A DNA stretch of 64,000 nt from Streptacidiphilus anmyonensis (lineage in GTDB: Bacteria; Actinomycetota; Actinomycetes; Streptomycetales; Streptomycetaceae): the NCBI RefSeq assembly GCF_000787855.1, contig NZ_BBPQ01000012.1, positions 22,383-86,382 on the forward strand, given 5' to 3'. A model generated the notes under the pieces. The model did no database searches. It was not told the DNA's origin and was given only the letters and a program-made list of their open reading frames with translations. A program made the position numbers and the translations under genes. Position 1 is the first letter of the stretch. Each line of letters begins with the position of its first letter. Shown here in pieces: positions 19,269-38,452 of this stretch.

Positions 19269-19283
19269 ATTCCGGACCTGCTT

Positions 19284-19305
19284 GCAGCCTGAATCTTCGG
19301 GCTGC
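19284..19305. terminator. weak hairpin between convergent HAD and RloB genes
   Basis: Short 6-bp stem GCAGCC/GGCTGC around a 10-nt loop in the 77-bp gap between two convergent genes. Position suits a shared terminator; the stem is short and without U tract. Confidence 0.3.
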
Positions 19306-19345
19306 TCCTCTTGGTGCGTGAGCCCGAGGCTGCTGGAATCACGCA

Positions 19346-19936: not shown

Positions 19937-19938
19937 TT

Positions 19939-21282
19939 CTACGCTCCAACATCTGTGCGGACGTCTGACCCTGACGCAGGATCATCGGCGACTCCGTCAA
20001 AGTTATCGGCGATGAATGGAATGGCCCCTACTGCCCCACCCAGGTAGCGCTTTTCCCAATTCAGTCCGGCCCGCGGTCGGAAGTCGGTGAGGGGAAAGAG
20101 CTCAGTTGCTCCGGTTTCGCTGTTCTTCTCGGTGAACCAAATCTCATCACGCTTCAGGAGCTCTTCACCCCCCGGACGACCCATGAGGGACGCATCATGG
20201 GTCGTGAAAATGAGCTGTGCCCCGTGCCCGTTGGTTTCGCTGTGCTGGAATAGCCGGATCATCTGTGCCAGGAGCAAAGGATGCAGGCTGGTGTCCAGCT
20301 CATCAACGACAAGCGTCCATCCCTTGCTCAGGGCTTGGGTCACCACTCCAGCAATATCGAACCAGGTTTGGGTTCCGCGTGACTCATCGTCTATCGTAAA
20401 GTCCCTGGCTCGATCTCCAAGGTGCTGGAATCGAATCGTGGTTCGCTGGTGCAGATTTTCGAGAACCGCCTGCTCCAGATTTGATGCCAACTTGCCATTG
20501 AACTTAATCCTGGCAATCCCGTCCCGCTCCTCGACTGCAAAGGATCCAGGAGCAAGACTGTCGTCCGAGACCTCTTCAAACTGCCATTTTAGGTTGCTAA
20601 CCGTGGCCCGGTTGATTCCGAAGTCGGCAGCCTTGAGGAGGGTTTCGATTGAATTCCGAGTCTCTGGATCAACCAAGAGTTCGCGGGTCATTGCGCGACG
20701 CGACTGGCGGCTTTTATCGTCGTCATCGGCAAACCAGACTGAGTCTCTGAACCATTCAGTGATGATTTTAGCGTCTGGCGCATCAGCCCTGGATGCATTG
20801 GTGATAAAAAGCTCTTTTGCGCCTGTGATTTCCGAAAGCAGGCCAGCCTTGGCCGAGCCGAAGGTTGGGCCGAAGTAGTACCCATCCTTTGAGCGCTCGA
20901 AAAGGATTCGCTTCTTCTTCTTGGGGAAGGAGAATAGCCACTCTTCGGCGATCCCGTCCATGTCAATGGAGAAGCCATATGAGTAGGGTGTGCCACCGAT
21001 TAGCAGGTCAACCGAGAATCGTGATGGCTTTGTTCGCGATTCATGGTCCAACAGGAAGGGGGCCCAGTACATGTTTCCGGCCTGGTCACGATCAGCCTGA
21101 CCGGTAATCGCGTCATGGATGAAGCGAATGCCGCGAAGCACATTCGACTTTCCCGAAGCATTGGCTCCATAAAGAGCGGCGACAGACTGGGCGTCAGCCT
21201 CAGACTGGTAAACCGGGCGCAGATCTAGGGTCTGATCACCCTGAAGGGATCGAAAATTCGAAATCGTGACACTGAGTAGCAT
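19939..21282 (-). CDS. AAA/ABC-type ATPase partner of RloB (RloA-like)
   Basis: 447 aa SMC-like ATPase. Features are the N-terminal strand MLLSVTISNFRSL, Walker A YGANASGKS (38-46), an ABC-signature-like SRGTQTW, Walker B LVVDELDTSLHP and a switch His in FTTHDASLM. It resembles the ATPases of RloA, PARIS and OLD-type systems that sense infection and control a Toprim nuclease. It is first in a two-gene operon. Codon use and GC are lower than neighbours, indicating recent acquisition as AICE cargo close to attR. Confidence 0.85.
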   Translation of the reverse strand: MLLSVTISNFRSLQGDQTLDLRPVYQSEADAQSVAALYGANASGKSNVLRGIRFIHDAITGQADRDQAGNMYWAPFLLDHESRTKPSRFSVDLLIGGTPYSYGFSIDMDGIAEEWLFSFPKKKKRILFERSKDGYYFGPTFGSAKAGLLSEITGAKELFITNASRADAPDAKIITEWFRDSVWFADDDDKSRQSRRAMTRELLVDPETRNSIETLLKAADFGINRATVSNLKWQFEEVSDDSLAPGSFAVEERDGIARIKFNGKLASNLEQAVLENLHQRTTIRFQHLGDRARDFTIDDESRGTQTWFDIAGVVTQALSKGWTLVVDELDTSLHPLLLAQMIRLFQHSETNGHGAQLIFTTHDASLMGRPGGEELLKRDEIWFTEKNSETGATELFPLTDFRPRAGLNWEKRYLGGAVGAIPFIADNFDGVADDPASGSDVRTDVGA

Positions 21283-21768
21283 TGTTCCCCATCTCGCTCA
21301 GCTTCACGTCCTTGTGAACAAGTGAACTGCATGAACTGGCTTCTGGCCCAGCGTAGATGCATGGCTAGGACTCGTAAAGGGATCACCACTGGGAGTAGCC
21401 CGAACGAGACCTCATGTCGAACGATCCCCGAGGTGGTATCCCGTCCCGGCGGGCGTCCAGGACGGCTGCCGCCTGGCCGTGCAGGGATGGCAGCGGCGCT
21501 GGGCGCCGTACGGAGTTGCTGGATCCTCGGGTCGGCTGCACGATCCAGACAGGTTCGCTGGACGCCTCGGGTGCGTGCTGCCGTACTCGGATGGCCTCAC
21601 CCAGGTACAGCGGCCGTCGTGCCCAGCCAGCAGGGCCAAGCCTGAGTGATGCGTTGTCCTGCTCTTTGTCCAGTGCGCTGACGAGCGCTGGCGTTCAACG
21701 GAGTACGCCCACCGCGTCCTACATGAACGTGAACCCCCACGGACGGCCTTGCACGGTCCGGCGGACAG
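21283..21768. other. gene-free right end of the AICE
   Basis: About 490 bp between the ATPase start and attR. Both strands show only long shadow frames without ribosome sites or recognisable protein. It must hold the promoter of the ATPase/RloB operon, which reads leftwards. Confidence 0.55.
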
Positions 21769-21823
21769 TTGGAAAGCGTGTTGGGGGCAACCCCTCACGA
21801 GTTCGAATCTCGTATCCTCCGCA
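21769..21823 (+). repeat. attR, 55-bp copy of the tRNA-Ser 3' end
   Basis: Identical to 7683-7737. Only the part from the anticodon loop onward is present, so it is not a second tRNA gene. Confidence 0.95.
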
Positions 21824-21826
21824 GGT

Positions 21827-21862
21827 AGAAGGCCCGCACTGGGAAACCGGTGCGGGCCTTCT
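21827..21862 (+). terminator. native tRNA-Ser terminator, displaced by the AICE
   Basis: 13-bp stem AGAAGGCCCGCAC with its complement around a 10-nt loop, starting 4 bp after the att core. It is most simply the original terminator of the tRNA gene before the element inserted. Confidence 0.75.
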
Positions 21863-21915
21863 GCGTTCCCCGGTCCGGTGCGGGCCGACGGGCGCGTCTT
21901 CGGCGAGTGCACAGG

Positions 21916-22320
21916 TCAGACAGAGATGATCTCGACGCCCTGCTCCAAGCCCTTGAAGTCCCCGGCGTTGCGGGTGAAGAGCGGGAGCCCGTGCGCGGAG
22001 GCGGTGGCAGCGATCAACAGATCCATGCGACGGGGGCGGGGGTTTCGATTCGCCTTGACGGTGAGTGCGACCAGCGTTCCGAACCGGCGGGCGGCTTCCC
22101 GGTCGAAAGGGATGGCCGCGAATTCCGCCTCGACGTCGGCCAGGCGTTGCGCGCGCGCCATCATCTCCGCCGGGTCCCTGGTCATCGCCACGCCCTGAGT
22201 CAGCTCCGCCAGGACGATCGAGGAGACGGCCGCTTCCACGGGGAGAAGCCCCGAATCGATCAGCGGCAGATCGATGACGACGCACGTGTCCAGCAGTCCG
22301 CGTGGCCGCCTCCCGGTCAT
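21916..22320 (-). CDS. PIN-domain toxin (VapC-like)
   Basis: 134 aa from ATG 22320, overlapping the antitoxin stop by 4 bp. PIN-domain acidic residues are visible: D11 in LLDTCVVIDLP, Glu in SSIVLAELTQG, Asp in RRMDLLIAATA and the terminal FTRNAGDF. Expected function: Mg-dependent RNase, inhibited by the upstream antitoxin. It lies about 90 bp outside attR, so it belongs to the chromosome or an older insertion. Confidence 0.92.
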   Translation of the reverse strand: MTGRRPRGLLDTCVVIDLPLIDSGLLPVEAAVSSIVLAELTQGVAMTRDPAEMMARAQRLADVEAEFAAIPFDREAARRFGTLVALTVKANRNPRPRRMDLLIAATASAHGLPLFTRNAGDFKGLEQGVEIISV

Positions 22321-26736: not shown

Positions 26737-26922
26737 GTGGCGTCGTTGACCAACATCGCCCGGCACGCCTCGCATGCGCGTACCGCGAGCATCGAGGTTG
26801 GGCTCGTCGGTATGTGCGAACGGGTGGAGGCACTCGGCGGCTCACTGGGTGCGGGGACCGGAGCCGCGCGGCGGCTGGCACGTGTCGGCCCGCATTCCCT
26901 TCTCCGCCGGGGAGGCCGGGGG
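26737..26922 (+). pseudogene. remnant of a sensor histidine kinase
   Basis: The frame opens within an HATPase domain (LTNIARHASHARTASIEV, then GLVGMCERVEALGGSLGAG, the N and G boxes). The C-terminal GGWHVSARIPF continues in another frame, showing a frameshift. The whole N-terminal sensor and the segment between N and G boxes are missing. It is a NarL/LiaS-type kinase that has decayed. Confidence 0.7.
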
Positions 26923-27440
26923 ACGATCAGGGTCCGGCTGGCGGACGACCAGGCGATGAGCCGCAGCGGGCTGCGGCTCATCCTGGAGGACCAGGACGAC
27001 ATCATGGTTGCCGGGGAGGCCGCGGAAGGCGCCGAAGCCGTGGAGTTGGACCGCCGGCTGCGGCCGGACGTCTGCCTCGTCCACATCCGGTTGCCCCGCC
27101 CGGACGGCATCGAGGTGACCCGCGCCCTGGCCGGGCCAGGCGTTCTTGACCCGTTGCGCGTGGTCATCGTCACCACCTTCGACCTCGACGAGTACGTCTA
27201 CGACGGCCGCGCGCAGGGGCTGTCGGCTTCGTCTTCACCATCACACTGCGGCTACGGCGGGCCTGGCCCCGACGCGCGCCGCGACCCTGTCGGGGCCCGC
27301 GCAGCCGCTCTCGCTGCGGGAGTTGGAGGTCGTCCAGGCGATTGCCCGCGGCCGGAGCCGGCTCGAGGGTTCCTTCGCGCCCAGGAGCGGACCGGGGCTC
27401 CGCTCTGGTTGCCGGGCGCACCTGGTCCAGGGGGTTGAGA
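26923..27440 (+). pseudogene. decayed NarL-type response regulator
   Basis: A receiver domain reads IRVRLADDQAMSRSGLRLILEDQDDIMVAG to about 27200. The LuxR-type HTH (LSLRELEVVQAIARGRS) then continues in a different frame near 27310-27360, so there is at least one frameshift. The expected start codon is ACG (26923) behind a GGAGG, and the phosphorylated Asp position is His (DVCLVHIRLP). These together mark a pseudogene, partner of the kinase remnant. Confidence 0.75.
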
Positions 27441-27666
27441 TGTCCTCCGGCCGCATCACGATCCTGGGCTGATGCCGGTCGACCGCCGCGCCGGTCGACG
27501 GTTGGCGATCCGGGCCGAGCTGGACGCTTTATGTCATGGCCGGTCTTGTCCAGCCTGCAGATCTTTTCTCTCCCCGCGGCCTGCGGAAGTATTCATGTTG
27601 TCGGAGCCGCGAGGAACGAAAGAACTCGGAAAGCGGCGATGCCAACGAGGGTCATCGAGGAGAGCC

Positions 27667-27849
27667 ATGAATCGGCAGTACGTGAGCAAGAGCACTTCGG
27701 TCGTCTTGATGCTGGCGATCTGCGCGACTTTCCTCGGTGTCATTCTTGCGCAAGCTTGGACCGGCGGCCAAGGGGCCGTCGGAAACCGAGCCTTCGCCGT
27801 GTCGGCCAGCCAGCCGGTCACGCCTTCCGACCTCACCTGGGGAAACTGA
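27667..27849 (+). CDS. 60-aa single-span membrane or secreted peptide
   Basis: Strong start: AGGAG 4 nt before ATG 27667. MNRQYVSKS is followed by one hydrophobic helix (VVLMLAICATFLGVILAQAW, residues 12-31), which could be a signal peptide or anchor. A 29-aa tail follows, ending in TPSDLTWGN. It starts the cluster, 31 bp upstream of the first precursor. It could be an immunity or processing helper, or simply a small exported peptide. I do not recognise a family. Confidence 0.7.
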   Translation: MNRQYVSKSTSVVLMLAICATFLGVILAQAWTGGQGAVGNRAFAVSASQPVTPSDLTWGN

Positions 27850-27880
27850 GGCGACGATAAGTCGCGAAGGGGTCAGCTAA

Positions 27881-28036
27881 ATGGAGAAGAACAGCCTTCC
27901 CGAGATCGGCCCTGCTGTCGAGAACTCAGTGGGAGACGCCGGCGGCGCCGAAATCTCGTTCGCGATGTGGGAGGTGTTCGAGCCGACGATCGAGGAGAGC
28001 ATCCTCGCGAGCGGCCACCACATCGCCGGGATCTGA
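27881..28036 (+). CDS. RiPP precursor peptide 1
   Basis: 51 aa, acidic leader (MEKNSLPEIGPAVEN, then EISFAMWEV) followed by FEPTIEESILASGHHIAGI to the stop. The start has AAGGGG 8 nt upstream. It shares 15 of 19 C-terminal positions with precursor 2, while the N-terminal parts differ. If the cluster's prolyl-oligopeptidase-like enzyme cuts after the conserved Pro35, the core would be TIEESILASGHHIAGI (16 aa). No Cys, Asp or Asn is in that core; Ser, Thr, His and Ile are the candidate modified residues. Confidence 0.85.
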   Translation: MEKNSLPEIGPAVENSVGDAGGAEISFAMWEVFEPTIEESILASGHHIAGI

Positions 28037-28063
28037 CGGGACTCCGGAATCCGCATCAAGTCT

Positions 28064-28087
28064 TCCCCCGGCGAACCGACCGGGGGA
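28064..28087 (+). promoter_or_regulatory. hairpin between the two precursor genes
   Basis: 8-bp stem TCCCCCGG/CCGGGGGA with an 8-nt loop, 27 bp after precursor 1 and 26 bp before precursor 2. It may stabilise or partly terminate the precursor 1 message. Confidence 0.5.
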
Positions 28088-28113
28088 CTCACGAAAAACC
28101 ACAGGAGGAAATG

Positions 28114-28260
28114 ATGGGCGAGAACCTGACCAACGTGAACGGCGACGTCGAGGCCGTCGAGGAGACCGTCTCCGAGCCGTTCACGGTCGGCGACAGCTTC
28201 GAGCCGACCGTCGAGGAGAGCATCCTCGCCAGCGGCCTGCACATCCAGGGCGGCTGGTAA
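28114..28260 (+). CDS. RiPP precursor peptide 2
   Basis: 48 aa. Two adjacent ATGs (28111, 28114) follow AGGAGG; the second has the better 5-nt spacing. Leader GENLTNVNGDVEAVEETVSEP is followed by FEPTVEESILASGLHIQGGW. The leader is highly acidic. Cleavage after the conserved Pro31 would give TVEESILASGLHIQGGW (17 aa). It differs from peptide 1 in the variable positions H to L, A to Q, and in a terminal GW. Confidence 0.87.
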   Translation: MGENLTNVNGDVEAVEETVSEPFTVGDSFEPTVEESILASGLHIQGGW

Positions 28261-28269
28261 CCAACGACT

Positions 28270-28286
28270 GACGGGCTTCGCCCGTC
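28270..28286 (+). promoter_or_regulatory. small hairpin after precursor 2
   Basis: 7-bp stem GACGGGC/GCCCGTC with a UUC loop, 9 bp after the precursor 2 stop. It probably protects the 3' end of the abundant precursor message. Confidence 0.5.
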
Positions 28287-28302
28287 GCCGTTCCTTCGGA
28301 GC

Positions 28303-28346
28303 GCGACCCGCGGCCACAGGGATGTACCCGGTCGGCCGCGGGTCGC
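28303..28346 (+). terminator. 13-bp stem-loop between precursors and maturation genes (attenuator)
   Basis: Perfect 13-bp stem (28303-28315 with 28334-28346), loop 18 nt, no U tract. It lies in the 113-bp gap before the first kinase, the longest gap in the operon. Such partial terminators let precursor mRNA exceed enzyme mRNA in RiPP operons. Confidence 0.6.
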
Positions 28347-28373
28347 CTCCGTTCGTATCCGAAGGGCAGAACT

Positions 28374-29249
28374 ATGTCCAGGCACATCGTCCGACTCGAT
28401 TTCTGGGGCGTCGGCGTTCGGGTCGATCTCCCCACAGCGGTGGATCAGGAGCATTTCAGCTTCCAGTTCAGAAACCACCTCGTCGAGGAACCCGCTGAAG
28501 GGCCAGATCAGCAGAGCGCTCAGGATCTGACCGTCGTCTTCCGATCGGACGGGGACGTCCCTTGGTGTCGAGCGGTGCTCGATCCGGGGATTCGAAAGGA
28601 TATCTGGATCAAGACGGGCGGCGGAGAGGCCCAGCTCTATGATTCATGGCTGAGGGGCTCCTCGCGACCCTCTCCCCTCCCCCCGCTCGGTTTTCCTCCG
28701 CTGGCCGGAGAATTCCGGGCGGTGCACGCCGCGTGCGCTCTTCCCGCCGACGGTGGTCCGGGGATCGTGGTGACGGGTGAGAGCGGAGCGGGAAAGAGCT
28801 CGATCCTGCTCTACCTGCTCGAATCCGGACACCTTTACGGAGGAGACGACCTGGTGCCGGTATCGCGCTCCGGGATCCGACCCTATCTCCGGACCATGAA
28901 TATCCGCACCGCTACATTGCGCAGCCTGCCCGCCGGCCTTCAGGAGAGGATCCGAGAGCACGGCCGACCGATGGAGACGCCTTCGGGGGTGACCTATCTG
29001 GTCCAGCCCGCCGATCTCGGTTACCCCTCGGCCGCTGCGGAGGTCGTGACGGAGGTGCATCGGGTCCATCTGACGGCCGCCGACGCGTTCTCGGCGGAGG
29101 TCCAGGCGGACGGTCGTCTCGCGATCGGGTGGGACGCCCCGCGCCATCGGGCCGAGGCGATGAGCGCGGTGGGACAGTACGTTCGATCGGCGAAGCCGTT
29201 CCGATTCGCGCCTGACGGGATCAGCGCGAAGGCAGCGGTCGCCGCATGA
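28374..29249 (+). CDS. HPr-kinase-like protein A
   Basis: 291 aa. An N-terminal domain (VRLDFWGVGVRVDLP, then FSFQFRNHLVEEP) resembles that of protein B. The HprK-like kinase core has VHAACALPADGGPGIVVTGESGAGKSS (P-loop G135-S142) and GGDDLVPV with the Asp pair D158/D159 that in HprK follows RGHrLvaDD. All catalytic elements are therefore present. HprK-related kinases occur in lasso peptide clusters, where one phosphorylates the peptide on Ser. The likely substrate here is a Ser or Thr of the precursors. Stop overlaps the next gene by 4 bp. Confidence 0.8.
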   Translation: MSRHIVRLDFWGVGVRVDLPTAVDQEHFSFQFRNHLVEEPAEGPDQQSAQDLTVVFRSDGDVPWCRAVLDPGIRKDIWIKTGGGEAQLYDSWLRGSSRPSPLPPLGFPPLAGEFRAVHAACALPADGGPGIVVTGESGAGKSSILLYLLESGHLYGGDDLVPVSRSGIRPYLRTMNIRTATLRSLPAGLQERIREHGRPMETPSGVTYLVQPADLGYPSAAAEVVTEVHRVHLTAADAFSAEVQADGRLAIGWDAPRHRAEAMSAVGQYVRSAKPFRFAPDGISAKAAVAA

Positions 29250-30091
29250 GCACACAGCGCCTGGACTTCGATTTCTTTGGCATCTCCACCGTGCTGGAGC
29301 TCGATGAGGAGGACGTCGCCACAGCCTCCTGGTTCTTTCGCCGACACCTGCTGGCGCAACCCCTCCCCGCCCACAAGATGCCGAAGGTGCGGGTGGCGTG
29401 CGGCCGCGGGTTCTTCGAGTCGCTGCTCGCGCACTCCACCGACGAGAAGTCGATGAGGCTGACAGACAGTCAGGGCACCCGCGAACTCACGTTCACCTCG
29501 TGGTCGCACGCTCCGAGCTTCATGCCGCCCTTCGCCAGCCACGAGTTCCTGGACCGCTACGCGATCATGCACGGTGCCGCTCTGGCAACGCCTGAGGGCC
29601 GTGGCCTGGTGCTGGTGGGGCGCAACTACATCGGCAAGACCGCACTGACGTTGGAGTTGCTCAAGCGCGGCTTCCACCTCGTCAGCGACAGCTGCGTCGT
29701 CATCGACTACGGGAGCCCGGTGGGGCCGCGACTACGTCGTTACGAGACGCCCTTCGGATTCCGACGCAACACCTTGCGGCGGTGGAAGCAGCAACTGGCA
29801 GGGGTGGAGCGGCGAAGCCAGATCTCGGAAGTGACCGGCGAGGTCGTCCTCGCGCACGCGCACGACGTCCTGCCGGACCTGAAGACCGCAGACCGGGTTC
29901 CGCTCGATCTGATGGTGTCCCTGACCGCGGAGGACGCGGACGAGGCGCCCTCGCAGGTGTTGCGTGTCTATCCGGAAGCTGCGGGACCTCGCGTGATGGA
30001 GACGGTCAATCTGGCGCGTCGCCACCGTCTGGGCGGGGTCGACCAGATGAAGGTCCGGGACTCGGCGGACAGGATCACGCAGCTGCTCTGA
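29246..30091 (+). CDS. HPr-kinase-like protein B
   Basis: 281 aa paralogue of protein A. The N-terminus (FDFFGISTVLELDEED) matches A. The core reads MHGAALATPEGRGLVLVGRNYIGKTALTLELLKRGFHLVSDSCVVI, close to HprK, with P-loop G125-T132. The second Asp of the HprK DD pair is Ser (SDS, 147-149), so its catalysis may be altered or it may act as a heteromer partner or binding protein. Translation is coupled to protein A. Confidence 0.8.
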   Translation: MSTQRLDFDFFGISTVLELDEEDVATASWFFRRHLLAQPLPAHKMPKVRVACGRGFFESLLAHSTDEKSMRLTDSQGTRELTFTSWSHAPSFMPPFASHEFLDRYAIMHGAALATPEGRGLVLVGRNYIGKTALTLELLKRGFHLVSDSCVVIDYGSPVGPRLRRYETPFGFRRNTLRRWKQQLAGVERRSQISEVTGEVVLAHAHDVLPDLKTADRVPLDLMVSLTAEDADEAPSQVLRVYPEAAGPRVMETVNLARRHRLGGVDQMKVRDSADRITQLL

Positions 30092-30142
30092 CGATGCCCC
30101 GGCTCCGTGCGATCGCCCGAGAGCCGGCCCGATGTAGGACAG

Positions 30143-31444
30143 ATGAGAGAGACGACAGTGCAGATTCTCGAGGCAGGTCAGCGCCGGGCGCTGAGGGTAA
30201 GGGACTTCCGACGACTGTGGGCCGGTGCTTCGGTCAGTCTGCTGGGCACGCAGGTGACTGTGCTCGCCCTGCCCACCGTGTTCGTGTTGTCCATCCATGG
30301 CGGACCGTTGGAGGTCTCGCTGGTCAATGCGATCCAGTACGCCGCCATGCTGCTGGGGCTCGGCTGGGCGGGCCGTGTGGCGGACCGGTTGGACCCGAGG
30401 ACCATCATGGTCGGCTGTGACTCGGTCCGAGCCACTGCCCTGGTGGCCATCCTCGTGATGAGCACGCTCGCCCGGCCCCAGGGCTGGGCGGTCCTGCTGG
30501 TGGCTGCGGTCATCGGCGCCGCCAGTGCGTTCAACGACACCGCGGTGGCTGTTGTGGTCCCTCGGGCACTCGTCGCGGACCTGCGCATCTACGGCAACAC
30601 GCTCTATGCCCAGAGCCAGTACGTGGCCTTCTCCCTGGGGCCGCCCCTCGCCGGCCTGTTGGTCGGTCTGTTCGGGGGAGGCCGTGCGGTCGCCATCGAC
30701 GCGGGCAGCTACGTCGTTTCCGCCTTCTTCGCCAGCCGACTCAGCCGTGCGGTGACCGGGGGCGAGGGACGGAGCAACTCCGCGCCCGCGGGCTCGTCCC
30801 GGGCTTCGGCCGCCCGCATGGTGTGGGGGACGAAGGCGCTGCGGAGCGTCGCCCTGGCGTCGGCCACGGGCAACCTCGGCCACCAGATGGTGCAGGGCGT
30901 CTACCTGCTGTTCCTCTACCGGTCCTACGGACTGTCCCCGGAGCTGGTGGGTCTGGGGTTCGGCGTCGGCGGGGTGGCCGGGATCTTCGGAGCGCGCTCA
31001 GCTGGTCCGCTCGCCCGGCGACTGGGCAACGGTTGGGCGCTCATGCTCGCGACGGTGTCGGGCGGCGGATCGTGGTTGCTGCTGTTCGTTCCGGGCGTCC
31101 CTCACGTCGTGGTGGTCGGCCTGGCAGCGACTCTGATCAGCTTCTGCATGCCGCTCTTCGGCGTCGTGCAGGCCACCCTGCGACAGGCGGTCACGCCGGC
31201 GGAGCGGCAGGGAGCGGCAGCCGCGGGGGTCGGCTTCATCAGCCTGTGCACCGTGCCGGTCGGATTCCTCCTCGGTGGGTTGCTCGCGCAGGGCGCGGGA
31301 CTCACCACCACCCTGATCACCGGGGCGGGCGTGGCGATGCTCTCGGGTCTGTGGTGTCTGCCGCTCGTCCGCGAATCCTCGACGACGACGCCGAAGACGC
31401 ACGGGGTGTCCGACCTGCCCGTGCCGGCGCCGGCGATCGACTGA
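30143..31444 (+). CDS. MFS exporter
   Basis: 433 aa from ATG 30143, with GGA 3-6 nt upstream. About twelve hydrophobic helices are visible, and the loop AGRVADRLDPRTIMVGCDSVRA between helices 2 and 3 is the MFS motif-A region of the MFS_3/MdtH-like branch. It lies between the kinases and the radical SAM gene. Expected role: export of the mature peptide and self-resistance. Confidence 0.9.
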   Translation: MRETTVQILEAGQRRALRVRDFRRLWAGASVSLLGTQVTVLALPTVFVLSIHGGPLEVSLVNAIQYAAMLLGLGWAGRVADRLDPRTIMVGCDSVRATALVAILVMSTLARPQGWAVLLVAAVIGAASAFNDTAVAVVVPRALVADLRIYGNTLYAQSQYVAFSLGPPLAGLLVGLFGGGRAVAIDAGSYVVSAFFASRLSRAVTGGEGRSNSAPAGSSRASAARMVWGTKALRSVALASATGNLGHQMVQGVYLLFLYRSYGLSPELVGLGFGVGGVAGIFGARSAGPLARRLGNGWALMLATVSGGGSWLLLFVPGVPHVVVVGLAATLISFCMPLFGVVQATLRQAVTPAERQGAAAAGVGFISLCTVPVGFLLGGLLAQGAGLTTTLITGAGVAMLSGLWCLPLVRESSTTTPKTHGVSDLPVPAPAID

Positions 31445-31478
31445 AGACACCGCAGAGCCAGCCCCAGGAGCCTCAACC

Positions 31479-33341
31479 ATGTCCAAGCAGATATTCGAAC
31501 TGACTCCGGTCCGGCGCTCCGGAAAAGGCCGGACAAGCCCTCTACAGCTCGCCTTCCACCGGGTCGCGGTCGTCTCCTTGCCGTTCTACACGCAGTACAC
31601 GGCCTGTCTGCCGGCCATGCTGCTGCGGGAGATCACCAAGGCTCACGGCGCCGAGGCCGACCTGTTCGCGGGCCACATCGAGTTCGCGCTCGAGTTCATC
31701 CGCAGCCAGCGTGATCACGACGTCTACAAGGACCTGACGCACGAGGCGTCCTTCGCCGACCTCTGTCTGCTGCCCCTGCTCCGCGGGTGGGACGAGACGG
31801 ACATGCGTGCCGGTCTGGACGCCTACGCCGACCGGATCTCCGCGCCGGACCGGGAGTTCAGGGACCGTCTCGGCGCGGCCTTCGACTCGTATCTGGACGC
31901 GCTCGTGGAGCGACTGCACGGATACGACGTCATCGCGTTGACGGCGACCCACTTTCAGCTCGTCCCGTCCCTTCTGCTGGCCGAGCGGCTCAAGTCACGC
32001 TACGGATCGACCGGCCCGAAGGTCGTGCTGGGCGGGTACCTGGCGTCGATCGAGAACGCGCGACTTCTTCTGGAACAACACCAGGACGTCGACGTCATCG
32101 TCTACGGGGAGGGCGAGGACGTCTGGCCGCGGGTCATGCGGGCGCTGGAGCAGGGCCGACGGAAGGTGGTGCGGGGTTCCGCAGCGTCGTTCAGGAACTT
32201 CTTCCCCAAGCACGACGACCTCCTGCGTCAGGTGGCTCGCGTGCCGTGGCTGAAGGGGCGCTTCGCCGCGACCCTGGAGATCAGCCGCGGCTGCTACTGG
32301 GACAAGTGCGACTTCTGCAACTTCAACGCGGCCTACGACGCGGTCTTCAAGGCGCATGCCGCCGAGCGCACCCTCGCGGAGATGGACCGTCTGGAGCGGG
32401 AGTTCGGGCAACGCAAGTTCCAGTTCACCGACACCGCGATCCCACGTACCCTCACCCGGCATCTCATCCAGCAGGACCTCCGTCGGGATTGGGACGTCTT
32501 CCTCGAGATCCGCCCGGACTTCGACTACTACGAGTACGAGGCGCTGCAACGACTGGGGACGATCCGCGTCCAGATCGGCATCGAGTCCATCGTCGAGAGC
32601 CACCTGGACAGGATGAACAAGAACTCCACGGTCGGCGACAACGTCCGCGCGCTGCTCATCTGCCAGCAGTTGGACATCGCGCCGACCTGGGGACTGCTGA
32701 TCAACCATCCGAACGAGACCGTCGAGGAGCTCGACGCGACCCTTGAGCGGATGCGCGCCTGGCGCCATCTTCCCCCACCGAAGTACGCGAGCTTCTGCGA
32801 GCTGCGCGTCGGAAGCGCCCTGGACCAGCAGCGTGACGAGATCCTCTCGGCTCCCGTGTATCCCTGCCCGGCCTACGCGCTGTTGCTTCCGCTTCGGCCG
32901 GAGTGCGCCGACTTCGTGCCGGTGGAGTCCTCCGACCAGCCGGCGGATCCGGAACGCGTATCGAGGCTGAAGCTGATCCAGCGCGAGATCGACGCCTGGC
33001 AGGCGGACTACGACGCCGGATCACGCTTGCTCGGGAGGCTGACGGAGAGCGGCCTGGTCGAGATCTCGGACCGCCGTCGCCCGGGACACGAGCAGATCGA
33101 CCTGCTGAACGAGCACGCGAGCGCTGTCATTCGCACGATGGCCAACGGTGCTCTGACCGTCGAGGAGATCACCGCGCTGGTCTCCTGCTCCACGAGTGCG
33201 GCGCAGCAGCTCTGCTCGGAGCTGGTGGACGCCGGATACGCCTTCTGGTCGGTTCAGCGGCGCTCGGCCCGACCGGTCCTGGAGGGCCTCGTCGGGGGGT
33301 TGATCGCCGCAGCCGCGCCGCTCCCGGAAAGGGTGTCCTGA
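31479..33341 (+). CDS. B12-binding radical SAM RiPP maturase
   Basis: 620 aa. An N-terminal cobalamin-binding Rossmann region (about 25-240; VVLGGYLASIENA, VIVYGEGEDVWP) is followed by a radical SAM core with cluster motif CYWDKCDFC (C272, C277, C280; spacing CX4CX2C rather than CX3CX2C). The barrel segments EIRPDFDYYEYE and VQIGIESI come next. Residues about 545-600 (LLNEHASAVIRTMANGALTVEEITALV) resemble a PqqD-like leader-recognition fold. Expected reaction: C-methylation at unactivated carbons of the peptide. No separate recognition protein is present, consistent with the fused domain. The stop overlaps the next start (TGATG). Confidence 0.85.
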   Translation: MSKQIFELTPVRRSGKGRTSPLQLAFHRVAVVSLPFYTQYTACLPAMLLREITKAHGAEADLFAGHIEFALEFIRSQRDHDVYKDLTHEASFADLCLLPLLRGWDETDMRAGLDAYADRISAPDREFRDRLGAAFDSYLDALVERLHGYDVIALTATHFQLVPSLLLAERLKSRYGSTGPKVVLGGYLASIENARLLLEQHQDVDVIVYGEGEDVWPRVMRALEQGRRKVVRGSAASFRNFFPKHDDLLRQVARVPWLKGRFAATLEISRGCYWDKCDFCNFNAAYDAVFKAHAAERTLAEMDRLEREFGQRKFQFTDTAIPRTLTRHLIQQDLRRDWDVFLEIRPDFDYYEYEALQRLGTIRVQIGIESIVESHLDRMNKNSTVGDNVRALLICQQLDIAPTWGLLINHPNETVEELDATLERMRAWRHLPPPKYASFCELRVGSALDQQRDEILSAPVYPCPAYALLLPLRPECADFVPVESSDQPADPERVSRLKLIQREIDAWQADYDAGSRLLGRLTESGLVEISDRRRPGHEQIDLLNEHASAVIRTMANGALTVEEITALVSCSTSAAQQLCSELVDAGYAFWSVQRRSARPVLEGLVGGLIAAAAPLPERVS

Positions 33342-35263
33342 TGTCCGCACTCTCAGCTGCGCCCGCGGGGGTTCAGGAGCTGCTGGAAGCGCTGGCGGCG
33401 AACCGGGAGCTGCCCGGTGACGGCATCTCGGTCTCGTGCGACCGACTGGCCTATCTGGAGCGGGCGGCCGGGGCGCAGCTTCCCGATCTGATGCTGCAGA
33501 GCCTTTCCGACGGCGAGAGCCGACGCTGGCCGCCGGGTGCGCACCTGCCTGCCGGTGCCAGACTCGGTAAGCCGACTCTGTCACCTCAGGGTCGCTATGT
33601 CGCTTTCCCGGTGACCCTCGACGGCAACGAGACCGGGGAACTGCGTGTGCTGGACCTTTCCACCGAGAGGCTGCTGGACGGCGCGCTGCCCGAAGTCCGC
33701 CATCCCGCGGTGGTCTGGGCGGGCGACGAGCGAAGCCTCTGGTGCACGCGGAGCGCGTCTCCTCACGGGGTGCCTGATCAGGTGGTGCGGTACCGGCTCG
33801 CCGGCGGCGAGGGAGGAGGAGAGGCCGGAGCCGTCGAGGAGGTCTTCCGCATCCAGGCCGGGGAAGGCGTCGTCTCGCAGGTGAGCCTCTCGGACGACCA
33901 GCGCCATCTCGCGATCCACGTCACGGTCATGCCACGGGGGACCGATCTCTACGTCGTCGACACCGCGACCCACGCGGTCGTCAGCTCACTGGTCGGCGGA
34001 CGTGGGCAACTTCGTGCGCATCTCGCCGGCGGGTACGTCTGGGCCACCAGCAATCGCGCGCATCCCGCCGGGGAGCTTCTGCGCCTGCGGCTCGACGACT
34101 CGCGCGCACCCGCTTGGGAGACGGTCTTCCGGCCGGACAGCGCGAGTGCCCGTCTGGTGGCCATGGCTGCCGGACCGAGGTCCCTCTTCGTTCACTACCG
34201 CGATACACGGCAGGGAGATCTGCTGGCCGAGGTGGACCTGGACAACGGACGCGTTTCACCGTTGGACTCCCCCGACGGAGTGGTCGCGGACCTGGTGGCC
34301 GTCCCCGACGCGAATCTCCTGGCGTACTCCGAGTTCACCGCCGACTTCGCCGACGGAGGCAGCTACGCCGTCGCCTCGTCACAGCCCAGCGGCGCCAGGC
34401 GCGTCCTGGTGCACAACCGCCTGCCGCACACGGTCCGGCTCAGGACGGACAGCTACGTCAGCGCGGACGGCGGCGCACGGCGCTTGTTCGTCGTGGAGGA
34501 GCAGGGAAGGGATCCGGACCGTGCTGGACCGGTCTTCGTCACCGCCTTTCCCGGTCTGCCCACACTTGCGACGAGCCCGCTGTACCGGTGGCTGATTCCG
34601 GTGCTCTGCGCCCGTGGAGTGCGCGTCGTGCTCCCCGTGATCGCCGGCCCGCTGTCGCCCCGGACGAGGTCCGCCCGCAGACCGATCGAGGATTTGGAGC
34701 TGGCCTGCCGGGAGCTGGTGGACAGGGGCTGGGTCGGCCCGGAAGGCATGGTCGCCGACGGCTGGAGCGAGGGGGGTCTCTACGTCGCCATGGCCATGAG
34801 CCGCAGCCCCGAGCTCTTCGCGGGGGTGGTTCTGCGCAACGCGCTGTTGGATCTCACCGTCACGGATCCAGGCCCGGTCGGCAAGGCCCGCTCGGCCCTC
34901 TACGGGCAGCCGGACAACCCGGGTGAACTCCCATGGCTCGAATCCCACTCGCCCATCCACCGGATCAGGCCGGGTCTCGCGTATCCGCCTGTCCTGGCAG
35001 CGGTGAACTCGCGTGACATGCGGGTGTCGCCCGACCAGTCCCGACGCTTCGTCGAGGCCCTGCACGACCGGGCGGCACCGCCGGCCTACGGTCGCCATCA
35101 ACTCATCGAGTCACCCGGTGGACACTTCGGCGCGGTCACCAAGTCGGATCAGATCGCCGAGGTCGCCGCACTGTCGGCGTTCGTCCTGGGGTGCTTCTCC
35201 ACGCCCCAGGGCTCCAGGATCTCTGACTTCCACAAGCCCGGAAAGGATCGCACGCATGAGTGA
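33341..35263 (+). CDS. prolyl-oligopeptidase-family (S9) peptidase
   Basis: 640 aa, no signal peptide, so cytosolic. The N-terminal half has beta-propeller-like repeats (LSPQGRYVAFPVTL, LSDDQRHLAIHVTV). The C-terminal alpha/beta hydrolase has nucleophile S476 in GWSEGG, Asp D559 in NSRDMRV and His H595 in SPGGHFGA, a complete triad. Members cut after Pro in short peptides, and one such enzyme (FlaP) processes a lanthipeptide leader. Both precursors have one conserved Pro in FEPT just before the shared core, so it is the likely leader peptidase. Confidence 0.87.
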   Translation: MSALSAAPAGVQELLEALAANRELPGDGISVSCDRLAYLERAAGAQLPDLMLQSLSDGESRRWPPGAHLPAGARLGKPTLSPQGRYVAFPVTLDGNETGELRVLDLSTERLLDGALPEVRHPAVVWAGDERSLWCTRSASPHGVPDQVVRYRLAGGEGGGEAGAVEEVFRIQAGEGVVSQVSLSDDQRHLAIHVTVMPRGTDLYVVDTATHAVVSSLVGGRGQLRAHLAGGYVWATSNRAHPAGELLRLRLDDSRAPAWETVFRPDSASARLVAMAAGPRSLFVHYRDTRQGDLLAEVDLDNGRVSPLDSPDGVVADLVAVPDANLLAYSEFTADFADGGSYAVASSQPSGARRVLVHNRLPHTVRLRTDSYVSADGGARRLFVVEEQGRDPDRAGPVFVTAFPGLPTLATSPLYRWLIPVLCARGVRVVLPVIAGPLSPRTRSARRPIEDLELACRELVDRGWVGPEGMVADGWSEGGLYVAMAMSRSPELFAGVVLRNALLDLTVTDPGPVGKARSALYGQPDNPGELPWLESHSPIHRIRPGLAYPPVLAAVNSRDMRVSPDQSRRFVEALHDRAAPPAYGRHQLIESPGGHFGAVTKSDQIAEVAALSAFVLGCFSTPQGSRISDFHKPGKDRTHE

Positions 35264-35927
35264 AACGCCCACCATGCTCAGGCCCAGGGACTGGGCTCGC
35301 GTCATGGCCGACTTCGAGGCCGCCGGACCACGGCCCGTGCTGGTCATCGACGACCTGTTCTCGGTGGCCGGCCTGAAGCTTCTGCACGACGAGTTGTCCG
35401 ACGACACACCGTGGGAGGAGTTCGCCACCTCTCGTCGGCGGAACAGGCCGCAGAGCCCTGGCCTGATCAGGGCCGGTGCCGAGCTGAGCGAGGCTCTCCA
35501 CCCCATGCTCGGCGCGATGAAGATCATCAGCCACTGGGTGATCGCCGCCGGCCGAGGCACAGGAATTCGGATGCATGCCGACAACTCCACCTACAGCATG
35601 AACATCTGGCTGAGCCCAGGCCCCCCGCGCCCGACTGCAGCCACCGACGGGATGCTCTTCTACGACGTGCTCCGGCCCGAGCGGATGCCCTATTCGAGGT
35701 TCTCCTCCCACGACGCGTGCGAGGAATTCGTCCGTGAACAGAACGGGATCGTCGCGCATCGCATCCCCTACCGGTGCAACCGGGCGGTGCTCTTCGACGC
35801 CCGCGTGATGCACCGCAGCGAACCGGTCTCGTTCCCGGGCGAAGCCGTCAGCGACAGCCGGATCAACCTCACCTACTCCTGGGACCACCTGGACTGGGCC
35901 CGTGCCCGCACGGAGATGTCGGCCTGA
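35256..35927 (+). CDS. 2OG-Fe(II) oxygenase
   Basis: 223 aa from ATG 35256, overlapping the S9 stop by 8 bp. The cupin core shows the facial triad H107xD109 (RMHADNSTYSMNIWL) and H186 (MHRSEP), plus the 2-oxoglutarate Arg R202 (SRINLTY). Size and pattern fit prolyl-4-hydroxylase-type enzymes. Expected reaction: hydroxylation of a peptide side chain, coupled to 2OG decarboxylation. Confidence 0.85.
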   Translation: MSETPTMLRPRDWARVMADFEAAGPRPVLVIDDLFSVAGLKLLHDELSDDTPWEEFATSRRRNRPQSPGLIRAGAELSEALHPMLGAMKIISHWVIAAGRGTGIRMHADNSTYSMNIWLSPGPPRPTAATDGMLFYDVLRPERMPYSRFSSHDACEEFVREQNGIVAHRIPYRCNRAVLFDARVMHRSEPVSFPGEAVSDSRINLTYSWDHLDWARARTEMSA

Positions 35928-35945
35928 GCCGGAAGGAGAACGTAC

Positions 35946-36962
35946 GTGTTGACCGATAGCGGGACCCCGGGGTGTCCGGCCGCCGCCGTGAGGTTGCCGG
36001 CCACGACGGACGCGGCCCGGCTCGTCGAAGAGCTTCAGCTGCTCACTGCCGAACGCTGGCGCCAGCAGCGCGTGTTCGGAGCGTCTCTCAGCAGCAGTCC
36101 GACGGACGCGGACTGGCGGATCCTCCCTCTCCGCAGCCCCGATGGCAGTCTGGAGCGGACGGATCCCGGCGGGCCCGGGACCGATGACTTCGCCGACACC
36201 ACCTGGATGGCCCGGGTCCCGTATATGCGCTCTCTGGTCCGGGCGATTCCTGTGCCCGTCCGGGCGGTGCGACTGATGGCGTTGGGCCCGGCCGCGGCCA
36301 GTCCGACGCACAGCGACCTCAAGTACGGTCCCCGATGGGGGCTGGCCCGCATCCATATTCCCGTCGTCACCAATCCTGGCGCCCTTCTGGACATCCAGGG
36401 AAACGAGTACTGTTGGCAACCTGGTGAAATCTGGTTCGGGGATTTCAGTCGGCCGCACCACATCCGGAACAGTGGACCGGAGACCAGGGTTCACATGGTG
36501 GTGGACTGCGTCGTGGCGCCCGAACTGACCCGCTACTTCCCGCCCGCATGGCAGGCCTACCTCGGTTCCGAGGACGTACTGAACAGCCGGCCCGAACAGC
36601 CGAGGCTCCGGCCGGGCGGCGGCGAACAGGTACGGCACCGCTTTCACGTGCCGACCCGGTTCCTGGACTGGCGTGAGCCGGCCGAGATGTCAATCGACAC
36701 AGCCCGGCCCCAGACGCTCGTGAGCGTGGTCGAGCGGCGTGAATCGGTGCAGCTGGTCCTGCCCGACCAACGAAAGTTCGGCCTGATTCACGTCGCCGAC
36801 CGGGAATTCCGATTCGCGGGATGGACGCAGGAACGCACCATCGTCCTGCCCGGACCCGACGTGAGCGCTGACTCCGTGGTGCTGCGAGCCAGGACGGGTC
36901 GCCTCCTGTACGAGGTTTCGGTCACGGCGGGATTCGACCGCAGCCCGATTCCGGTCGCCTAG
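35946..36962 (+). CDS. aspartyl/asparaginyl beta-hydroxylase-type oxygenase
   Basis: 338 aa from GTG 35946, with AGGAG 7 nt upstream. The family motifs are in order: THSDLKYG (H122, D124), LARIHIPVVTN (R135, H137), GEIWFGDFSRPHHIRNSG (H171/H172, N175) and RVHMVVD (R181, H183). About 110 extra C-terminal residues form a second, unrecognised domain. The predicted peptide cores lack Asp and Asn, so it may hydroxylate His (as related FIH-type enzymes can), another residue, or a leader site. It ends the operon and overlaps the convergent regulator by 4 bp. Confidence 0.85.
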   Translation: MLTDSGTPGCPAAAVRLPATTDAARLVEELQLLTAERWRQQRVFGASLSSSPTDADWRILPLRSPDGSLERTDPGGPGTDDFADTTWMARVPYMRSLVRAIPVPVRAVRLMALGPAAASPTHSDLKYGPRWGLARIHIPVVTNPGALLDIQGNEYCWQPGEIWFGDFSRPHHIRNSGPETRVHMVVDCVVAPELTRYFPPAWQAYLGSEDVLNSRPEQPRLRPGGGEQVRHRFHVPTRFLDWREPAEMSIDTARPQTLVSVVERRESVQLVLPDQRKFGLIHVADREFRFAGWTQERTIVLPGPDVSADSVVLRARTGRLLYEVSVTAGFDRSPIPVA

Positions 36963-37957
36963 GAGACGGACGCGCGCGTGAACCAGCCTCTTTCCGTCGC
37001 GTTGCAACCGGCCTCGAACCGGCTCTTCGCATCGAGAGCTTCCATCAGCTTGGCCACGGTCCTGCGGGTCGTGCGCGGTGACACCCCGAGCCTGTTGGCG
37101 ATGGCTTCGTCGGTCAGGCCGGCGCGCATGAGCCGTAGGGTCCCCAACTCCTGTGTCGACAGGCCATGTTCATCACGCTTGCCCTGGTCGAGCAGGGTGG
37201 AACCGGTGTCCCAGACGAGCTCGAACAGGGCGGTGAGCGCCGCTATGGTTCCCCTGCCGCGGACGATGAGCGCCCCGTCCGCGGCAGCGGCGGGGTTCGC
37301 GGGAAGGACGGCGAGCCGACCGTCCACGATGATCATCCGCAGCGGGAGCACGGGCACGGTGCGCACCTCCGCACCCTGCTCGCAGAGCCAGTGGACGTGG
37401 TCCACGGTCGGCGGGTCGTTGCGGATGCTGTCCAGATACACCGTGCGGACGGTGACGCCTCGCTCGAAGAGGTCGGCGTTGGGCTGCCGACTCGCGTGCA
37501 GATCCTCGGGGGTGTGTGCGCCACCGGGAGCGAAGGTCATGACCTGCTCGCGTGCCTCCGTGCCGATTTCGGCCAGGCGTGCACGAATCTCGGAGATTCC
37601 GACGACCTCCTCGGCGGCAAGGGCGCCGTCCTCGAGGTCGAGTTCGGCGCACTGGGCCGCGAGAAGCGCCGCTGCGGCACGGGATGCTTCAAGACGCTGT
37701 TGCTGGGCTGCCAACTCGGCCTGCTGCTTGGCTATGAGAGCATCGAGGCCGACGCTGGCGCGTACGGCTCGGAAGCCCGACGGAGTAGCCGAGTTCCGCA
37801 CCAGTGCGAGAGTGCTGAGATGGCCCAGAACGTCCTTAAGACCGGGCTCCCCGAGGCCGATTCTGGCCGCGAGCTCGGGCAGCGTCTCTTTCGGGTGCAC
37901 CAGCATTTCCCGATAGACGCGTTCCGACGTCGCGTCGAGTCCCAATAGTTCGAGCAA
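36959..37957 (-). CDS. LuxR-type regulator with TrmB-like N-terminus
   Basis: 332 aa. No ATG or GTG fits; a TTG at 37957 gives MLELLGLDATSERVYREML, the start typical of this Streptomyces family, behind a GGGG. The N-terminal winged helix (ELAARIGLGEPGLKDVLGHLSTLALV), a coiled coil (LIAKQQAELAAQQQRLEASR) and a PLD-like sensor part precede a C-terminal LuxR HTH (TDEAIANRLGVSPRTTRRTVAKLM). Convergent with the RiPP operon and the best candidate for its local regulator. Confidence 0.88.
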   Translation of the reverse strand: MLELLGLDATSERVYREMLVHPKETLPELAARIGLGEPGLKDVLGHLSTLALVRNSATPSGFRAVRASVGLDALIAKQQAELAAQQQRLEASRAAAALLAAQCAELDLEDGALAAEEVVGISEIRARLAEIGTEAREQVMTFAPGGAHTPEDLHASRQPNADLFERGVTVRTVYLDSIRNDPPTVDHVHWLCEQGAEVRTVPVLPLRMIIVDGRLAVLPANPAAAADGALIVRGRGTIAALTALFELVWDTGSTLLDQGKRDEHGLSTQELGTLRLMRAGLTDEAIANRLGVSPRTTRRTVAKLMEALDAKSRFEAGCNATERGWFTRASVS

Positions 37958-38101
37958 GCCGATCCCCCGGTGTCGGTCGTCCTGGCAACTGGGCAACTAG
38001 ACCGCAATATACTCTAGCGCACCTGGCAGAGGCTGGGCGAGCATGGCAATTGCCCGCTTTGCGCCCTTGGTGCAAGAATGCATCCGGATGGTTGATGAGT
38101 C

Positions 38102-38452
38102 GTGTTCCTTATCCATGCTGAACTTCATTCTGCATCAGCCGACCTGGCTTCGGCCGAGCGAATGGCACGTGATCTCGTGGGGGCGAGTGGCGCATCTGCG
38201 TCCATTGAACATGTCCATTTGCACCCCTTCGTGGACGGTCGCCACGTCCTGGGGATATTCGTGAGCTCGGACTCCCTCGCCACTGCGGAAGCCGCCGCTC
38301 AGCGGGCATGCCGCCGTCTCCTGACCGGCTCATCCGCGTTCGAAGGCCTGCGGCTCGGCCGCTGCGAGGCTGTCATCGTGCCGGAGTACTACGCGCAGTT
38401 GACGACCTTGGACGCCGAGGCGGCCGGTCGGGAAGGGGACGAGGCGATGTGA
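38102..38452 (+). CDS. small hypothetical protein beside the RiPP cluster
   Basis: 116 aa from GTG 38102 (MFLIHAELHSASADL). Alternating strands and helices are rich in Ala; a conserved-looking core is VHLHPFVDGRHVLGIFVSSDSLATAEAAAQRACRRLL. The ferredoxin-like alternation suggests a small binding domain. No known function. It is divergent from the regulator, sharing its 144-bp upstream region, so the regulator may control it. Confidence 0.65.
   Translation: MFLIHAELHSASADLASAERMARDLVGASGASASIEHVHLHPFVDGRHVLGIFVSSDSLATAEAAAQRACRRLLTGSSAFEGLRLGRCEAVIVPEYYAQLTTLDAEAAGREGDEAM

What the first reader, a model, noticed from the sequence alone, without database searches (positions are those of the whole stretch)
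27667..38452. Unassigned RiPP cluster combining HprK-like kinases, a B12 radical SAM enzyme and two oxygenases
Sequence shows two small precursor genes with a shared C-terminus followed by two HprK-like proteins, an MFS exporter, a cobalamin radical SAM protein with PqqD-like tail, an S9 peptidase and two different 2OG-type oxygenases, almost all overlapping or within tens of bases. From known families, the markers of lanthipeptides, lasso peptides, thiopeptides, graspetides and bottromycins (LanM/LanC, asparagine-synthase-like cyclase, YcaO, ATP-grasp) are absent. Inference: a peptide that is C-methylated, hydroxylated and perhaps phosphorylated, with no macrocyclase gene in sight. I know of no described class with this set.
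Basis: partly seen in the sequence, partly recalled or inferred. Interest (0 to 1): 0.93.

Follow-up and report, generated by a model that had tools for sequence, protein, structure and literature searches.

The report
New kinase-paired RiPP peptide gene cluster
A rare set of neighbouring bacterial genes, carrying the same short peptide signature in the window's own bacterial family and in a distant Rhodobacteraceae genome, is predicted to make a small decorated peptide with a kinase-like protein pair, a vitamin-B12 methylating enzyme and oxygenases, a combination that my literature searches did not find described.

Summary
The gene set is there: two short precursor genes, two HprK-like proteins, an MFS exporter, a B12 radical SAM enzyme, a prolyl-oligopeptidase-type S9 peptidase and two oxygenases (one by motif only), on one strand with gaps of -8 to 113 bases. 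The back-translated motif occurs in 5 of 394 family genomes: in precursors of the 3 genomes with the cluster, and in long unrelated ORFs of 2 others. Thirteen more distant radical SAM loci show neither the pair (tblastn) nor the motif. New: HprK-A keeps the catalytic Asp-Asp while HprK-B lacks the second Asp in 8 of 8, so is likely a pseudokinase partner; the Pro of FEP is the only Pro in the G048 and G1035 precursors and fits the S9 peptidase; the radical SAM tail has RRE-like topology. I found no described class with this set. All product chemistry is untested.

The parts
27881..28036 (+). precursor 1, 51 aa, MEKNSLPEIG...VFEPTIEESILASGHHIAGI
27977..28021 (+). conserved block FEPTIEESILASGHH of precursor 1 (invariant F,E,P,T,E,E,S,G,H)
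   Evidence: Ser44 is the invariant Ser
28114..28260 (+). precursor 2, 48 aa (or 49 aa from ATG 28111), ...FEPTVEESILASGLHIQGGW
28198..28242 (+). conserved block FEPTVEESILASGLH of precursor 2
   Evidence: Ser40 is the invariant Ser
28374..29249 (+). HprK-A: HprK-like, Walker A GESGAGKS and Asp-Asp kept; predicted active kinase
29246..30091 (+). HprK-B: HprK-like, Walker A kept, second catalytic Asp replaced (Ser here); predicted pseudokinase partner
30107..31444 (+). MFS exporter
   Evidence: PF07690 9e-28
31479..33341 (+). B12-binding radical SAM protein, nearest NCBIfam model the RiPP C-methyltransferase TIGR03975 (182.9 bits, cut-off 281.85); CX4CX2C; RRE-like tail, residues about 517-603
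33341..35263 (+). S9 peptidase, prolyl-oligopeptidase type
35256..35927 (+). OG1, HxD...H...R oxygenase candidate (motif only)
35946..36962 (+). OG2, Asp/Asn beta-hydroxylase family (PF05118)
36959..37996 (-). regulator with a LuxR/GerE-type C-terminus and a weak TrmB-like N-terminus; likely cluster regulator by position only
27667..27849 (+). 60-aa ORF with one hydrophobic segment, 31 bases before precursor 1; role unknown

Best explanation
This is a conserved gene cluster, likely of a so far undescribed RiPP class, in which the two short peptides carrying FEPTxEExxxxSGxH near their end are the predicted substrates of the enzymes beside them. Predicted steps: (1) the RRE-like tail of the radical SAM protein, and probably the HprK pair, hold the precursor; (2) HprK-A, which keeps the kinase residues, would phosphorylate the invariant Ser of the S-G-x-H end, with HprK-B as a non-catalytic partner; (3) the B12 radical SAM enzyme would C-methylate an unactivated carbon and the two oxygenases would hydroxylate residues of the same block, the invariant His and Glu residues being the obvious candidates; (4) the S9 peptidase would cut after the Pro of FEP, releasing TIEESILASGHHIAGI and TVEESILASGLHIQGGW in modified form; (5) the MFS protein would export them. 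Shown here: the genes, their order, the precursor conservation, the replaced second Asp in HprK-B and the S9 type. Inferred: every chemical step.
For: Precursor block, radical SAM gene and adjacent HprK-A and HprK-B in 4 of 4 readable loci of the close clade: window, L003 (Rhodobacteraceae MAG WTAL01000049.1), L008 (G048), L038 (G1035). Motif pattern in 5 of 394 family genomes: 4 of its 6 places are precursors, the other 2 lie in reading frames of 730 and 675 codons; the backwards control pattern hit 1 of 394. HprK-B homologues: 5 of 7 database proteins have the same longest-contig length and source as a radical SAM homologue (173252 = window, 8208 = L003, and new ones 68593, 26464, 12893), and a precursor (P0052) carries the 68593 length too. 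P0052 differs from precursor 2 at 6 of the first 28 positions but at 1 of the last 20. HprK-A keeps DD in 3 of 3 aligned and in the G1035 sequence printed, aligned to the DD of solved HPr kinases; HprK-B reads SD[SHQ] in 8 of 8. Radical SAM model pLDDT 89.9; top Foldseek matches are B12 radical SAM enzymes OxsB and MgmA. S9: best PDB matches prolyl endopeptidases; an S9 protein is also in G048 and G1035, whose precursors contain a single Pro, that of FEP.
Against: No product is known and no step has been tested. Only 4 loci could be read; they were chosen by their radical SAM gene, and G048 and G1035 are near copies (76 to 92% identical proteins), so they stand for 3 lineages. L003 is an 8.2-kb MAG contig that ends 416 bases after its oxygenase gene and shows no S9 gene or exporter; its precursor is 94 aa with the block near the N-terminus, which does not fit a simple leader-then-core layout, and its stretch after S-G does contain Ser. 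HprK matches are below Pfam and NCBIfam cut-offs. OG1 has no significant family match and its model is poor (pLDDT 51.7); the G048/G1035 oxygenase is only 20-21% identical to it. The RRE-like tail is missing in 6 of 26 aligned radical SAM homologues and in G048 and G1035; Pfam's PqqD model does not hit it, whereas MarR_2 does at 9.4e-6. The fixed block and variable tail also fit a cut after S-G instead of after Pro.
Confidence: 0.62

Rival explanations
1. Same enzymes, different cut: the conserved block is the recognition leader and the product is only the short variable end after S-G (HHIAGI, LHIQGGW, LHKQFVVD). The FEPT[IV] stretch would be the RRE-binding motif, comparable to the [Y/W]xxPx[L/V/I/A/F/Y] motif of lasso leaders.
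For: Residues after the invariant His vary between loci; the lasso RRE motif is given in PMC13381572 (passage) and resembles F-x-P-x-[IV].
Against: The S-G-x-H part is as conserved as FEPT although it would straddle the cut; the short ends of the window peptides hold no Ser, Thr or Tyr (the G048 end neither, by reading), leaving a Ser-type kinase without a substrate in the product (the longer L003 end does hold Ser); no C39-type peptidase domain was seen among the window proteins scanned.
Confidence: 0.22
2. The peptide end is a scaffold for a small molecule or cofactor (as PQQ or mycofactocin are cut from a conserved peptide end), so the modified residues, not the peptide, are the product.
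For: The C-terminal block is nearly invariant across distant hosts, more like PqqA or MftA (recalled) than like a variable antibiotic core; P0052 against precursor 2 shows the same bias.
Against: The residues after the invariant His vary and the window has two precursors with different ends; an exporter lies in 3 of 4 loci (MFS in the window, ABC in G048 and G1035; none seen on the 8.2 kb of L003); the cluster is rare and patchy, unlike a cofactor pathway.
Confidence: 0.14
3. The HprK-like pair does not phosphorylate the peptide; it binds NTP and serves as a peptide carrier or activates the peptide for another step.
For: Matches reach only the P-loop part of the HprK profile (positions 18-57 and 7-54 of 171); the Glu that follows in HPr kinases (Glu202 in M. 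pneumoniae, PMC11204831, passages) was not traceable in these alignments; HprK-B lacks the second Asp.
Against: HprK-A keeps Walker A and the Asp pair; HprK-like kinases of two other peptide families, paeninodin-type lasso peptides and LPPs, phosphorylate a Ser (PMC13381572, passages).
Confidence: 0.2
4. Ordinary case: a degenerate lasso or LPP cluster that lost its cyclase.
For: Shares an HprK-like kinase and an RRE-like fold with paeninodin and LPP clusters.
Against: No lasso B or C protein, no NTP transferase and no signal-peptidase-like LppS among the cluster proteins scanned; precursors lack the lasso motif and carry their own conserved block; the defining partner is a B12 radical SAM enzyme, not named in the LPP core set.
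Confidence: 0.04

Closest known systems
Linear Polyphosphorylated Peptides (LPP; lpp cluster of P. alginolyticus, PMC13381572, passages read)
   Same: HprK-like kinase beside a small precursor, no macrolactam cyclase; kinase shown there to put phosphates on one Ser
   Different: LPP uses one kinase, a discrete RRE, an NTP transferase, a signal-peptidase-like LppS and an MsbA-like transporter; here two HprK-like proteins (one apparently inactive), a B12 radical SAM enzyme, a prolyl-oligopeptidase-type protein and two oxygenases, and a different precursor block
Paeninodin-type lasso peptides
   Same: HprK-like tailoring kinase (PMC13381572, passages)
   Different: no lasso peptidase or cyclase among the proteins scanned; precursor without the YxxPxL leader
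RiPP radical SAM C-methyltransferases, TIGR03975 (rSAM_ocin_1)
   Same: best NCBIfam match of the radical SAM protein over residues 29-589, E 9.6e-54
   Different: 182.9 bits, below the 281.85 cut-off; own clade around SRGCYWDKCDFCNFN; 13 more distant loci lack the kinase pair and the motif
ApyD-type RiPP radical SAM proteins (NF050148)
   Same: B12-type radical SAM protein of a RiPP pathway (NCBIfam name; B12 type recalled)
   Different: 52.4 bits against a cut-off of 750; that pathway's other enzymes are recalled, only a title and abstract start were seen (PMC10635010)
Prolyl oligopeptidases PCY1 (macrocyclase) and OphP
   Same: the cluster's S9 protein aligns to both
   Different: closer to plain prolyl endopeptidases (2bkl, E 2.3e-22); whether it cleaves or cyclises is unknown

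Membership tests
RiPP (in general) | short precursor gene beside modifying enzymes, conserved together | tested here: met
   4 of 4 readable loci, 3 lineages; motif search
RiPP (in general) | modified peptide product | not testable with these tools
   needs expression and mass spectrometry
Lasso peptides | B2-type leader peptidase and Asn-synthase-like cyclase in the cluster | tested here: not met
   none among the ten proteins scanned
LPP | discrete RRE, NTP transferase and signal-peptidase-like LppS with one HprK-like kinase | tested here: not met
   none of these; definition passages
TIGR03975 RiPP C-methyltransferase | score over the curated cut-off 281.85 | tested here: not met
   182.9 bits
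TIGR03975 RiPP C-methyltransferase | B12-binding plus radical SAM architecture | tested here: met
   PF04055 over and PF02310 under its cut-off; OxsB, MgmA, TsrM, CysS and TokK among the structural matches
HPr kinase | Walker A and catalytic Asp pair in HprK-A | tested here: met
   3 of 3 aligned
HPr kinase | Walker A and catalytic Asp pair in HprK-B | tested here: not met
   SD[SHQ] in 8 of 8
HPr kinase | score over the family cut-off | tested here: not met
   25.2 and 28.9 bits against 33.3
PqqD / RRE domain (radical SAM tail) | three strands followed by three helices | tested here: met
   model strands 517-521, 527-531, 539-542 and helices 545-554, 561-568, 572-584, block pLDDT 91 or more
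PqqD / RRE domain (radical SAM tail) | sequence match to the PqqD family | tested here: inconclusive
   Pfam none; single profile pair 78% and E 1.8e-5 with a hand-chosen 10-row tail, 32% and E 4.8e-4 with the 20-row tail
2OG-Fe(II) oxygenases (OG1) | HxD...H metal triad and 2OG-binding Arg in a double-stranded beta-helix | tested here: inconclusive
   H107, D109, H186, R202 in 4 of 4; model too poor to test the fold
Asp/Asn beta-hydroxylase (OG2) | PF05118 over the cut-off | tested here: met
   51.1 bits against 22.6
Lanthipeptides, graspetides, bottromycins | LanM/LanC, ATP-grasp or YcaO gene in the cluster | tested here: not met
   no such domain among the ten proteins scanned

The most novel reading that the evidence does not exclude
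The founding member of a new RiPP class defined by an HprK-type kinase working with its own pseudokinase twin: the pair phosphorylates the invariant Ser of the FEPTxEExxxxSGxH block, the B12 radical SAM enzyme and the oxygenases methylate and beta-hydroxylate the neighbouring His and Glu residues, and a prolyl oligopeptidase cuts at FEP to release an acidic phospho-histidyl peptide suited to binding metal.
Probability: 0.3. Interest if true: 0.87.

Novelty: new variant of a known kind. Interest (0 to 1): 0.74.

Why it matters
If true, it adds a RiPP class with an enzyme combination not seen together before, would put B12 C-methylation and peptide phosphorylation on one precursor, and would give the first kinase/pseudokinase pair in RiPP biosynthesis that I know of (recalled, not searched for as such). 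The FEPTxEExxxxSGxH signature with an adjacent HprK pair is a handle for genome mining; peptides this short are likely often missed by gene callers (the precursor search returned only the window's own peptide and P0052).

Tried and rejected
Tried without gain: viral-contig scan with the radical SAM alignment (69 stretches, no relative); plasmid collection with the radical SAM protein (67 records, all under 60% identity, none covering 80% of it) and with HprK-B (no match); precursor homology search (only itself and P0052); OG1 against PDB sequences (none) and OG1 structure (pLDDT 51.7, not used further). The genome-contig scan gave 15 stretches and one relative, L003. The pdb_via list shows no RRE chain; it barely covers residues beyond 539, so it says nothing on the tail. 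A first tail-versus-PqqD comparison was invalid because minus-strand loci had been read in the wrong orientation; it was repeated correctly. Of the 50 radical SAM homologues (a capped candidate list), the best 26 were aligned and the 24 with E of 5.7e-12 or worse were left out.

Considered and rejected: ESILASG as the family signature (EEAIM in G048/G1035, EEATM in L003); an ordinary chromosomal HprK as the source of HprK-B (in 189 genomes of the L003 family 41 have a match, but only G575 has a full-length one, 414 bits; the best of the other genomes is 38 bits over a short P-loop stretch); the 116-aa ORF 38102-38452 as part of the cluster (no family match, no tblastn match in the other loci). 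Two weak HMM hits for HprK-like proteins near distant radical SAM loci (L030 E 0.0038, L031 E 0.0086) were judged noise because tblastn at 1e-3 found nothing there. The only SG[LH]H-type hit in small frames of the 13 distant loci was one ASGLH in L027, without FEPT.
Full report
What is in the window. On the + strand from 27881 to 36962 lie two precursor genes, HprK-A, HprK-B, an MFS exporter, a B12 radical SAM gene, an S9 peptidase gene and two oxygenase genes; gaps between consecutive genes from 27667 on run from -8 to 113 bases. A regulator lies on the - strand at 36959-37996, with a LuxR/GerE-type C-terminus and a weak TrmB-like N-terminus. The window lies on contig C142 of a 9.39-Mb draft genome; G+C per 2 kb is 0.66-0.75 outside a dip at 18-22 kb.

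Precursors. The two peptides have unrelated first halves (399 of 1000 shuffles reach their similarity) and a nearly identical block from F-E-P-T on: among its 16 codons, 2 synonymous and 2 amino-acid differences. Together with the peptides of G048 and of the Rhodobacteraceae MAG the invariant positions are F33, E34, P35, T36, E38, E39, S44, G45 and H47 of precursor 1, besides the start Met. The G1035 peptide is the same as that of G048 but for a two-residue insertion, with 2 further synonymous base changes, while the neighbouring proteins compared are 76 to 92% identical.

Conservation of the set. Four loci could be read; G048 and G1035 are near copies, so they stand for three lineages. Window: precursors, A, B, MFS, radical SAM, S9, OG1, OG2. 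L003: precursor, aldo-keto reductase, tetrapyrrole-methylase-family protein, radical SAM, A, B, oxygenase candidate, with a PhyH protein on the other strand. L008 and L038: PhyH-like protein, a second B12 radical SAM protein, precursor, radical SAM, A, B, ABC ATPase, permease, S9, DUF6445-type protein (the family matches were scored on L008). HprK-A is directly followed by HprK-B in all four. The S9 gene is in three; L003's contig ends 416 bases after the oxygenase gene. Database proteins extend this: 5 of 7 HprK-B homologues share longest-contig length and source with a radical SAM homologue; two of these five are the window and L003 themselves, three are new (68593, 26464, 12893); P0056 (4767) and P0058 (30954) have no such partner. 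That they lie on one contig is inferred from the lengths; the contigs were not read.

Specificity. A back-translated FEPT[IV]EE pattern found 6 places in 5 of 394 genomes of the window's family: 4 are the precursors of the 3 genomes with the cluster, 2 lie inside frames of 730 and 675 codons; the backwards control hit 1 of 394. Radical SAM searches gave the close clade (621 bits or more) in 3 of 394 family genomes. In the other draws the close-clade genomes were G000 and G048 of 199 relatives, G000 of 396 of the phylum and G575 of 390 of the L003 order; further genomes there matched more weakly. The draws overlap. Thirteen of these more distant loci (L009, L010, L016-L018, L027-L034) show no tblastn match to HprK-A or HprK-B at 1e-3 and no precursor motif in small frames; two HMM hits of E 0.0038 and 0.0086 in L030 and L031 were taken as noise. 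A HprK-B search of 189 genomes of the L003 family gave one full-length match, G575.

Enzymes. Radical SAM: invariant C272-x4-C277-x2-C280 in 26 of 26 aligned homologues; model pLDDT 89.9; structural matches to OxsB, MgmA, TsrM, CysS and TokK. Its tail has the RRE order of strands and helices, with moderate profile support and a competing MarR_2 match. HprK-A and HprK-B: the profile of HprK-A matches HPr kinases 1ko7, 1jb1 and 1knx, aligning its DD with theirs. By count along the 1knx alignment these are Asp177 and Asp178, listed as conserved in PMC11204831 (passages); that the second is the catalytic base is recalled. HprK-B reads S-D-[SHQ] in 8 of 8. S9: nearest solved relatives are prolyl endopeptidases, then OphP and PCY1, then oligopeptidase B. 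OG2 is PF05118. OG1 rests on a motif.

Mechanism. The only invariant Ser of the block, next to Gly-x-His, is the natural target of HprK-A, because HprK-like kinases of LPP and paeninodin clusters phosphorylate Ser (PMC13381572, passages) and the ends after S-G contain no Ser, Thr or Tyr in the window peptides or, by reading, in that of G048; the longer L003 end does contain Ser. The only Pro in the G048 and G1035 precursors is that of FEP, which fits a prolyl-oligopeptidase cut. These are inferences, and both are testable.

Comparison with the literature. Searches combining RiPP, HPr kinase/HprK, radical SAM, prolyl oligopeptidase and lasso terms listed no paper with this gene set by title and abstract start; passages were read only in PMC13381572, the nearest case, and in PMC11204831. 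The library holds open-licence PMC papers only, so an article elsewhere cannot be excluded.

Verdict. A real, rare, conserved cluster with a new precursor signature and an unusual pair of an intact and a degenerate HprK-like protein; product and chemistry unproven.

Noticed in passing
window 26737-27472: Response-regulator receiver domain (PF00072) whose frame seems to shift near its end, the rest continuing in another frame: likely a decayed regulator just upstream of the cluster.
   Followed up: partly
window 18001-22000: G+C falls to 0.59-0.62 against 0.66-0.75 elsewhere; holds an AAA_21 ATPase gene on the - strand at 19942-21282: possible mobile or defence island.
   Followed up: partly
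window 27667-27849: 60-aa ORF with one hydrophobic segment ending PSDLTWGN, purine-rich stretch before its start, 31 bases before precursor 1; no family over a cut-off.
   Followed up: partly
L003 1816-3706: 94-aa precursor with the block near its N-terminus, with an aldo-keto reductase gene and then a tetrapyrrole-methylase-family protein (PF00590 1.7e-12) behind it: possibly borosin-like backbone N-methylation of the same precursor family (borosin link recalled).
   Followed up: no
L008 6812-9244 and the matching stretch of L038: A second B12 radical SAM protein of about 800 aa directly before the precursor, 88% identical between G048 and G1035.
   Followed up: no
protein P0056 (383 aa): HprK-B homologue that runs into a sequence resembling the start of the L003 oxygenase: a natural or assembly fusion of the two neighbours.
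   Followed up: no
window 38102-38452: 116-aa ORF after the divergent regulator; no Pfam or NCBIfam match, no copy in the other loci.
   Followed up: partly
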